Origin: Gryganskiella cystojenkinii
Lineage: Eukaryota > Mortierellomycota > Mortierellomycetes > Mortierellales > Mortierellaceae
NCBI GenBank assembly: GCA_015852425.1
Contig: JAAAIG010000024.1
Span: 6,208 to 70,207 of the forward strand
Direction: 5' to 3'
Length of the DNA stretch: 64,000 nucleotides
The translations under genes and the position numbers were made by a program. The notes below the pieces were generated by a model. It was not told where the DNA came from. It worked only from the letters and a program-made list of their open reading frames with translations, and made no database searches. This document shows, piece after piece, positions 56,148 to 58,982 of the stretch (within the stretch, counting starts at the first letter, position 1; the number at the start of each line of letters is the position of its first letter).

Positions 56148-58982
56148 TCATAGATCGTACAGCTCAGACTCGTCCAATCCATCCAACAGGTTATCGAGAT
56201 CGTCGTCATCGTCGATAGGATCGTGAGCTTGCTGTTGTTGCTGTTGCGGTTGCTGTTGTGGTGGTCGACTTGCAGTGGAAGCAGCAGGGCCTGATGAGGG
56301 ATTGGAGGTTGTCGACGGTCTATGCGGTTCCTGGGATGAAAGGACGTTAATGGAGGGAGGGGTGGAGGCAATAATGGTAGTCGAATCCCTGACAACGCGG
56401 GTCGAGGGCGGAGAGCTCAAAAGTTCATCATCCAGAGCACCTTCGAAATCGACCCCTGAAAACTCATCCAGCCAGTCGGTCGAGCTGAGTTGCTGATCGA
56501 TCTGTTGTTGACTTGAGGAACCGGAGCTATTGTTATTAATATTGTGTCCTTGAGAGATTCCGTTCGGGGTTGAGAGCGAATTAGAGGAGGCCACCACCGC
56601 CGCCGCTGCCGCCCCCACACTACCAGCACCCGCCATGACCGGGGAGCGGATAGTAGCGGATCCAGACGAATTAGCTCTTGTATTAAGGGTCGTTGGCGAG
56701 GATCGTTTGCGAAGATCAGCCGAGGCCGCAAATGCCGCAAGACTTCCTCCCCCGCCTGCTAGTCGTTGTGTTGGTTGTGGCATAGTAGGCGTGGCTGAGC
56801 CTAAGAGACCCATGGGTGTGAGTGGCCATTCGTCCTGAAGGATTGTCGGTCTTCCATGTGCAAGACCGCCGTTACCCAGGGTCTGCCTCAGGCTTTGAAA
56901 CTGGACTCCTTGATCCTGGGTCACTGGCTGGGACGCCTCCTGTGACAGGATAGGTGAAGGAGTGAATCCCAAAGATCCGACACGTTGTTTCTTGAGCACA
57001 TTTTCCTGACTGCGACGAGTGGAGAACTCTCCGGGTTGACTCGAGGATGATAATGTTATTACTGCTCTTTCGGATTTGACTGATACAAGGTCATCATACT
57101 CAACGCTTGGCGGTTGTTGACTGTCCATCGATAGGTTCATTAGGTCCAGAGTCGCCTGACTTGGACTACCAGGGGTCTTTAGCTGTGAAAGATCGTCGTC
57201 TTCAGGGATATCGCTCCAATCGGGTGAGAGGATCGGACGCTTTCTAGTTATCGTGTTTGATGTTGTTGTCGTTGTTGATGCTATGGTCGATGTTGTTGTC
57301 GGGGGTATGGATGAGTGCCTCAAGGATGGGGAAGAGTTGAAATCCTGGCTCGGAGATGCACCCATGTTTACATGTACGCCTGCAGGACTGCCAATTTGGC
57401 TAGCCAATTCCAGTGGGGACAAGACCCTAGACCTTTTCTGTGAACTCCCTCGTTCTTGGGACGATCCTTGTGAAAGACTGATAGTGACAGGGTGTGGCTG
57501 AAATAACCCAACAATGTTCCGAGGCAGGATCATGAGGTAGTGCGAAACTTGAAGTGAGAAGACCGAGACCTAACAATCATGAGAAAGAAAGGTGATAGGT
57601 AAGGATAGTGTAATACCCGACTACTAAGTCATTCGACAAATCGAATGGTATGGGAGCAAAGACACCTACATTGGTAAGAGCTAGAACCGTGCCTGCCCTA
57701 ATCTCATTGTTCTTGTACTGTTCCAGTACATCTCTATGCAAGGTACCAGGCATCTCTCCAGAAGGATCCAATAGTGTCACGGCGGTATCGATCTCGGACA
57801 AGGACACATCCTTGATCATGACGACAATCTTTTCGATCTTGCCTCGGTGGAGTTCCCTGTTTTGTTCGATATCCGATATTGATAAGGCTGTCCATTCACT
57901 GAGGAGCTTGCAGGCGTGTAGCGATGAGGCTATCCTTGTTCATAAGAAAATGTCAGTATCATATATGTCAAGCGGAAAAGCTAGAGTCGCAGTACCGCTT
58001 TGACCAAACACAATAATCAGAGAAAAACAAAGGAGAGAAAGATACGTTACGTTTGTAGTCTGGTGTACCCAACTCCCTCATCATATCCTGCCACGCACCA
58101 GTGGCGAACATGGCATCGACAGGTCCATGAAGGACGGATTTCATCTTTTTCTTGATCGAAGAGTTTGGACTCGTGCTGTTGGGATTAGGAGTCAAGTCCC
58201 CGCCAAAAGGTTTTCCTTTGGATCGAAACAGTCTGTCCTTTTCTTCTGCACTCTATGTTTCATGTGAGAGGACAAGAGGACATCGAGTGAATAATCAAAG
58301 TGCATGTTCTGTCTCTGTTTGCGCAACCCTCCTTGGCTTTTGGTTTTGTTTGCTGCAACAAAAACAAAATGATTTTCGGTCTCTTACCAGTCTTGGAAGA
58401 TTTCCAGCGGGTCCAGGCAGTCTGCGCTTTTTCTGTCCCTCACCGCTACCTCTTCCTGCTCCTGTTCCAGATCCCGAGGGGAGCACGAGTCCAGTGGAGG
58501 GTGAACTGTAGCTCCGTAAAAGACCTGAGCCTGATCTGAATGTCGGGCGAGGTGGTTCGCCATTTGGTTCTGGGGTCCTGCTGACTCTGCCGGAGGTTAA
58601 TGATGCGGAAGTTCCACTACCACTGCCACCACTGGTTTCATTCGCGATGGAGGCATTGCTGTGTCGGAGATTCTTGTAACTGCTGTTGCTGTTGCTGCTG
58701 CTGCCTGTATTGGTATTTCCAGGGTTCGAATGGGTGGAAAGAGTCCTGTTAAAGTTGGTGCTGTAGGTGCTGTTGCTGTTGTTGGTGCTGTGCATAGGAT
58801 CGCGTAGCGGTTGCGGTGGTGGTGGTACAGCAGAAGAAGTCGAAGAAGAAGAAAGTGGAATGTTGCCACCGTTTAGCTTGGAGGTAAGATTCTAAATGGA
58901 GTGATGAAGAATCGGGGTTATTGTCACAATAACAAACATCCATTACGAGAATTCGTGGACCATGCGTACATACCTGGAACAT
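56148..58982 (-). CDS. HROB: HROB-like OB-fold protein (homologous recombination factor)
   Basis: Five phase-consistent exons (58974-58982, 58388-58891, 58051-58252, 57625-57929, 56148-57569) encode 813 residues; exon 1 is nine bases (MFQ). The motif KKRRLPGPAGNLPRL (about 157-171) matches the conserved PGPAG motif of HROB (human C17orf53/MCM8IP). The OB-fold segment (about 255-365) reads VVMIKDVSLSEIDTAVTLLD, GEMPGTLHRDVLEQ, IRAGTVLALTNVGVFAP and the strand HYLMILPRNIVGLF. In animals HROB recruits and activates the MCM8-MCM9 helicase during recombination. The long C-terminal part is Ser-rich and disordered, with two acidic Leu motifs (DEFSGVDFEGALDDELL and the terminal DDLDNLLDGLDESELYDL). 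Exon 4's donor (GTAGTC at 57624) is weak but is the best in-frame option. Confidence 0.8.

What the first reader, a model, noticed from the sequence alone, without database searches (positions are those of the whole stretch)
56148..58982. HROB (C17orf53/MCM8IP) homologue in a fungus
The translated exons carry the PGPAG motif and an OB-fold block that line up with animal HROB, and the model joins in phase across four introns. HROB partners MCM8-MCM9, which are missing from the standard fungal models. A copy here suggests that the early fungal lineage kept this recombination pathway.
Basis: partly seen in the sequence, partly recalled or inferred. Interest (0 to 1): 0.75.

Follow-up and report, generated by a model that had tools for sequence, protein, structure and literature searches.

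The report
Fungal HROB gene with MCM8-MCM9 retained
A soil mould carries the gene for HROB, a DNA-repair helper known mainly from animals and plants, together with its helicase partners MCM8 and MCM9, so this repair machine was not lost in all fungi as is sometimes written.

Summary
A five-exon minus-strand gene (56148-58982) encodes an HROB-family protein: PF15072, 76.5 bits, cut-off 30.8. One splice site needs correcting: intron 4 is 57669-57570, so the protein has 798 residues, not 813, and is identical to BGZ83_004561 of Gryganskiella cystojenkinii, Mortierellomycota. AlphaFold2 gives a confident OB fold at 269-350 with helices upstream. The same genome has MCM8 (693 bits to solved MCM8, best other 333) and MCM9 (540 against 252), and RAD51, BRCA2, FANCD2 and Spo11-type family matches. 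The 46 hits of the first HROB search all bear names of Mortierellaceae genera; 17 chosen fungal MCM8s lie on one side of a 100/100 branch from 12 holozoan ones, favouring inheritance. This contradicts 'missing in fungi' (PMC11055865) and the loss placed before zygomycetes (PMC2667178). The gene is a new member of a known family, already Pfam-labelled in databases. Function is inferred; of two published contact pairs, the MCM9 residue is kept and the MCM8 residue is not.

The parts
56148..58982 (-). HROB gene, five exons, 798-aa protein (Gryganskiella cystojenkinii BGZ83_004561)
   Evidence: identical protein record; PF15072 76.5 bits
58974..58982 (-). exon 1 (MFQ, 9 nt)
   Evidence: majority start MFxxLxxKLNGG in alignment A1 of 15 proteins
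58388..58891 (-). exon 2, low-complexity N-terminal region ending in the PGPAG motif
58394..58426 (-). RRLPGPAGNLP, residues 159-169; candidate MCM8-binding motif
   Evidence: G163, P164 and G166 each kept in 29 of 34 aligned proteins, gap in 3; its place in human HROB is recalled
58051..58252 (-). exon 3, start of helix-rich region
   Evidence: helices 215-221 and 223-232 in the model
57670..57929 (-). exon 4, helices and first part of OB fold
   Evidence: corrected 3' end
   Evidence: Pfam score rise
57495..57840 (-). OB fold, residues 269-350 (split by intron 4)
   Evidence: PF15072; blocks of pLDDT 87-97
57558..57560 (-). F329, counterpart of human HROB F553 (MCM9 contact) by recalled human sequence
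   Evidence: F in 31 of 34 aligned proteins, gap in 3
56148..57569 (-). exon 5: end of OB fold, long disordered tail with SQ/TQ excess and conserved short motifs
56880..56906 (-). tail motif VQFQSLRQT, residues 547-555
   Evidence: FQSL in 27 of 30 Mortierellaceae rows
56694..56741 (-). tail motif LAAFAASADLRKRSSP, residues 602-617
   Evidence: FAA in 28 of 30 rows
56460..56483 (-). tail motif STDWLDEF, residues 688-695
   Evidence: DW in 28 of 30 rows (two letters only, so weak)
56160..56213 (-). acidic C-terminal end DDDDDLDNLLDGLDESEL, residues 778-795

Best explanation
This is a genuine, most likely vertically kept HROB (MCM8IP, C17orf53) orthologue of a Mortierellomycete. It most likely works as in animals: a mostly disordered adaptor that grips MCM8 through the PGPAG segment and MCM9 through its OB fold, loading and activating the MCM8-9 helicase in homologous recombination and crosslink repair downstream of RAD51. 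Shown here: gene structure, family, predicted fold, and MCM8, MCM9, RAD51, BRCA2, FANCD2 and Spo11-type family matches in the same genome. Inferred: binding, helicase activation and a role in repair or meiosis.
For: PF15072 is the only family over its cut-off. All 46 hits carry precomputed PF15072 and names of Mortierellaceae genera. A profile search reaches a sponge HROB (P0169), 62 of 192 columns identical to P0001 from PGPAG to the end of the OB fold. OB fold in blocks of pLDDT 87-97. MCM8 and MCM9 identified by wide score gaps and, for MCM8, WHD_MCM8 PF25051. MCM9 M45, a published HROB contact (PMC11055865, passages), is M in the fungus; F329 is kept in 31 of 34 proteins, gaps in 3. By hand count, 22 names appear both in the HROB lists and in the 120 MCM8 hits listed. 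17 fungal MCM8s lie on one side of a branch, 100/100.
Against: No expression or binding data. The published MCM8 contact L387 aligns with Thr in the fungal MCM8. An N-terminal acidic SFGxDDFL-like stretch, a candidate RPA-binding patch, is in 22 of 30 Mortierellaceae rows by a loose pattern but not in this species. MCM9 was spliced by hand and its start codon is unsure. HROB was not found here in fungi outside Mortierellaceae (limited sensitivity), and HROB itself was not treed.
Confidence: 0.88

Rival explanations
1. A different OB-fold protein (RPA-like, CST/POT1-like) that merely resembles HROB.
For: Foldseek's best-ranked solved structures are RPA and Teb1 chains, with CST/POT1 among the first ten; VIA-align lists HIN, tRNA synthetase and RPA70N domains.
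Against: The 50 Foldseek rows shown are at 7-20% identity, and no HROB structure was found by sequence in the PDB, so none could win. By sequence HROB is the only family over its cut-off, and no RPA or CST family was listed at E<=1; PGPAG, helix-rich region, OB fold and acidic end keep HROB's order.
Confidence: 0.02
2. A HROB relic or repurposed protein that no longer serves MCM8-9.
For: L387 contact of MCM8 not conserved; acidic N-terminal patch absent here; long tail with its own conserved motifs.
Against: MCM8 and MCM9 both kept with GKS Walker A motifs; MCM9 M45 and HROB F329 kept; strong conservation among the 46 relatives.
Confidence: 0.08
3. Contamination or horizontal transfer from an animal rather than inheritance.
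For: The literature places loss of MCM8/9 before zygomycetes (PMC2667178, passages).
Against: 46 hits across many Mortierellaceae genera; the window also carries CDC48-like and AIP3/Bud6 genes; 17 fungal MCM8s, chytrids to Mortierellaceae, separate from 12 Holozoa at 100/100 in an unrooted sense.
Confidence: 0.02

Closest known systems
Animal HROB / MCM8IP / C17orf53 (PF15072)
   Same: PGPAG segment, helix-rich region, OB fold, acidic C-terminal end, largely disordered; MCM8 and MCM9 encoded in the same genome
   Different: Tail of about 450 residues after the OB fold with conserved FQSL, FAA..LRKR and DW motifs and SQ/TQ excess; no N-terminal SFGxDDFL-like patch in this species; Thr at the MCM8 L387 position. 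Human sequence not compared in a tool; the animal compared is a sponge
MCM8-MCM9 helicase
   Same: Both subunits present in the genome; MCM9 keeps M45 and has a long C-terminal extension
   Different: Not in the window; on other contigs (C528, C455)

Membership tests
HROB (PF15072) | Curated Pfam score cut-off 30.8 bits | tested here: met
   76.5 bits, residues 269-350, profile 2-84 of 85
HROB (PF15072) | OB fold with helix-rich region directly upstream (PMC11675949, section 3.2 read) | tested here: met
   strands between 269 and 348, helices between 215 and 266
HROB (PF15072) | MCM8-binding segment upstream of the OB fold (human 396-413, PMC7290032 passages) | tested here: inconclusive
   PGPAG kept and aligned with sponge HROB; that human 396-413 is this segment is recalled; the MCM8 L387 partner position is Thr
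HROB (PF15072) | MCM9 contact through OB fold (HROB F553 - MCM9 M45) | tested here: inconclusive
   M45 aligned with M; F329 in 31 of 34, 3 gaps; but that F329 is human F553 rests on the recalled human sequence
HROB (PF15072) | Binds and activates MCM8-9 | not testable with these tools
   needs biochemistry
HROB (PF15072) | N-terminal acidic RPA1-binding motifs (PMC7290032 passages) | tested here: inconclusive
   SFGxDDFL-like patch absent here, present in 22 of 30 Mortierellaceae rows; equivalence to the human motifs is a guess
MCM8 | Best match to solved MCM8 and MCM8 winged helix | tested here: met
   693.1 against 333 bits; PF25051 57.1 bits, cut-off 26
MCM9 | Best match to solved MCM9 | tested here: met
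   539.7 against 252.4 bits; 553.4 bits for the hand-spliced core
RPA / CST OB proteins | RPA or CST family match by sequence | tested here: not met
   no such family listed at E<=1
RPA / CST OB proteins | Closer by structure than HROB | tested here: inconclusive
   generic OB matches only and no solved HROB to compare

The most novel reading that the evidence does not exclude
Mortierellomycete HROB is a rewired variant: it keeps the MCM9 grip but has changed the MCM8 contact and gained a long SQ/TQ-rich tail with family-wide short motifs, which would place MCM8-9 under ATR/ATM-type kinase control or add a fungus-specific partner; the MCM8-9-HROB machine was then lost separately in Mucorales and in Dikarya.
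Probability: 0.2. Interest if true: 0.55.

Novelty: new member of a known kind. Interest (0 to 1): 0.42.

Why it matters
A 2024 paper on HROB says that MCM8 and MCM9 are missing in fungi (PMC11055865, passages), and Liu 2009 put their loss before the split of zygomycetes, with Phycomyces the one zygomycete in the table passage I saw (PMC2667178). A Mortierellomycete with HROB, MCM8 and MCM9 moves that loss later or makes it repeated, and offers a culturable fungal group in which the complex could be studied by gene knockouts.

Tried and rejected
HROB in fungi outside Mortierellaceae: a ten-row profile search gave 29 hits from 7992 scored candidates; 24 bear Mortierellaceae-genus names, the rest are a sponge, an MMETSP entry and three without a name. 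The search needs shared 5-letter words and a length window, so absence is not shown. Solved-structure search with the HROB profile found no HROB (four chance hits, E 0.68-0.83). Fold searches list only generic OB domains; HROB is not among the rows shown. Rfam at gathering score and ARAGORN found nothing in the window. SQ/TQ excess in the tail: 17 found, 9.8 expected by shuffling, p 0.008 in this protein; p under 0.01 in 14 of 29 rows tested, so not in 15 (a 30th row was too short); N-terminal region 0 of 26 tested; the rows are related, so this is weak. The alignment A3 behind these counts used 34 of the 52 HROB proteins found (EamA fusions and others left out). Literature: Mortierella with MCM8 or HROB, and 'early-diverging fungi' with MCM8, none; Batrachochytrium or Phycomyces with MCM8, only Liu 2009. 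Searches asked for any two terms and say little. The lists name further papers (such as PMC4647503, PMC2680839, PMC13060065) that I did not open. Subscription papers and figures are not held, and Figure 2 and the supplements of PMC11675949 may show fungi.

Full report
Gene. On the minus strand an ATG at 58982 opens a 9-nt exon, followed by exons 58891-58388, 58252-58051, 57929-57670 and 57569-56148 with GT-AG introns. The deposited model is itself a prediction. The species is in Mortierellomycota. The window also holds CDC48-like AAA, AIP3/Bud6 and kelch genes.

Family. PF15072 (HROB) is the only Pfam family over its cut-off, and the search of the genome gave one such match (the control run of that search also rang in Bacillus subtilis, under the cut-off). 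A search of 5.8 billion proteins gave 46 relatives from 877 candidates, all with names of Mortierellaceae genera (family membership of the genera is recalled, only Gryganskiella was looked up). A profile of ten rows reached four more distant proteins, all PF15072 (P0169-P0172), among them one from the sponge Corticium candelabrum, which aligns from PGPAG to the end of the OB fold with 62 of 192 columns identical. In 34 aligned proteins D293 and G296 are invariant; G163, P164 and G166 of PGPAG are each kept in 29 with 3 gaps; F329 in 31 with 3 gaps.

Structure. AlphaFold2 on 34 sequences: mean pLDDT 51.8, since 568 of 798 residues are below 50, but the ten-residue blocks from 221 to 350 run at 87-97: helices to 266, then the strands of an OB barrel between 269 and 348. 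Solved-structure matches are generic OB folds.

Partners. PF00493 gives 12 matches on 8 contigs, read as eight MCM genes. Six have AKS or SKS in Walker A (MCM2-7 by recalled signatures, not tested one by one), two have GKS. The C528 gene is P0047, 880 aa, already named mcm8 of G. cystojenkinii, 693.1 bits to solved MCM8, next non-MCM8 333. The C455 gene gives 539.7 bits to solved MCM9, next 252.4; spliced by hand it keeps the counterpart of M45. The counterpart of MCM8 L387 is Thr, against the published contact (PMC11055865, passages read). Both positions were read off chain numbering, taken to be human numbering because M45 and L387 fall on M and L. FancD2 (7 matches on one contig), Rad51 (5 on one contig), BRCA-2_OB1 (1) and TP6A_N, the Spo11-type family (1), are also present; these are family matches, not gene models.

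Evolution. Of the 120 MCM8 hits listed out of 7991 scored, fungal names outside Mortierellaceae include Calcarisporiella, Dimargaris, Coemansia, Kickxella, Basidiobolus, Neoconidiobolus, Paraphysoderma, Spizellomyces, Chytriomyces and Obelidium (phyla of three checked). I treed 29 of these 120, 17 fungal and 12 holozoan (one labelled cnidarian by guess): fungi lie on one side of a 100/100 branch. The root is unknown, Neoconidiobolus is a long branch with odd composition, and 9 of 26 inner branches are open. This speaks for inheritance of MCM8; MCM9 and HROB were not treed. Liu 2009 (passages read) found MCM8/9 in Batrachochytrium and Encephalitozoon but not Phycomyces, and inferred loss in the common ancestor of ascomycetes, basidiomycetes and zygomycetes; MCM8 in Mortierellomycota and Kickxellomycota argues against that placement. 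PMC11055865 says MCM8 and 9 are missing in fungi. PMC7290032 (passages) reports co-occurrence of the three genes among multicellular eukaryotes; PMC11675949 (section 3.2 and passages) calls HROB early eukaryotic and absent from S. cerevisiae, and the passages I saw name no other fungus. Absence from Mucorales was not tested here.

What differs. The fungal tail after the OB fold is about 450 residues in this protein, with conserved short motifs and an SQ/TQ excess in this protein and in 14 of 29 rows tested. The N-terminal SFGxDDFL-like patch, found by a loose pattern in 22 of 30 Mortierellaceae rows, is missing here and in Entomortierella parvispora, and tblastn with the N-termini of five relatives found no convincing trace of it in the locus; some of the eight rows without it are truncated models. 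Verdict: a true HROB, not found in print by the searches named in Tried and rejected, ordinary in family, useful for dating the loss of the pathway in fungi.

Noticed in passing
proteins P0006, P0007, P0008, P0009, P0019, P0022: Six of 46 Mortierellaceae HROB models are fused to an EamA transporter domain (PF00892), probably merged neighbouring genes.
   Followed up: no
window 56151-57494, minus strand: SQ/TQ excess and conserved short motifs in the disordered C-terminal tail of HROB.
   Followed up: partly
G000:C776, C221, C194, C456: FancD2, BRCA2 OB1, Spo11-type TP6A_N and Rad51 matches in the same genome.
   Followed up: partly
one search list: MCM8 is found in many non-Dikarya fungi (Kickxellomycota, Basidiobolus and Neoconidiobolus, Blastocladiomycota, chytrids), wider than the fungi in the 2009 survey.
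   Followed up: partly
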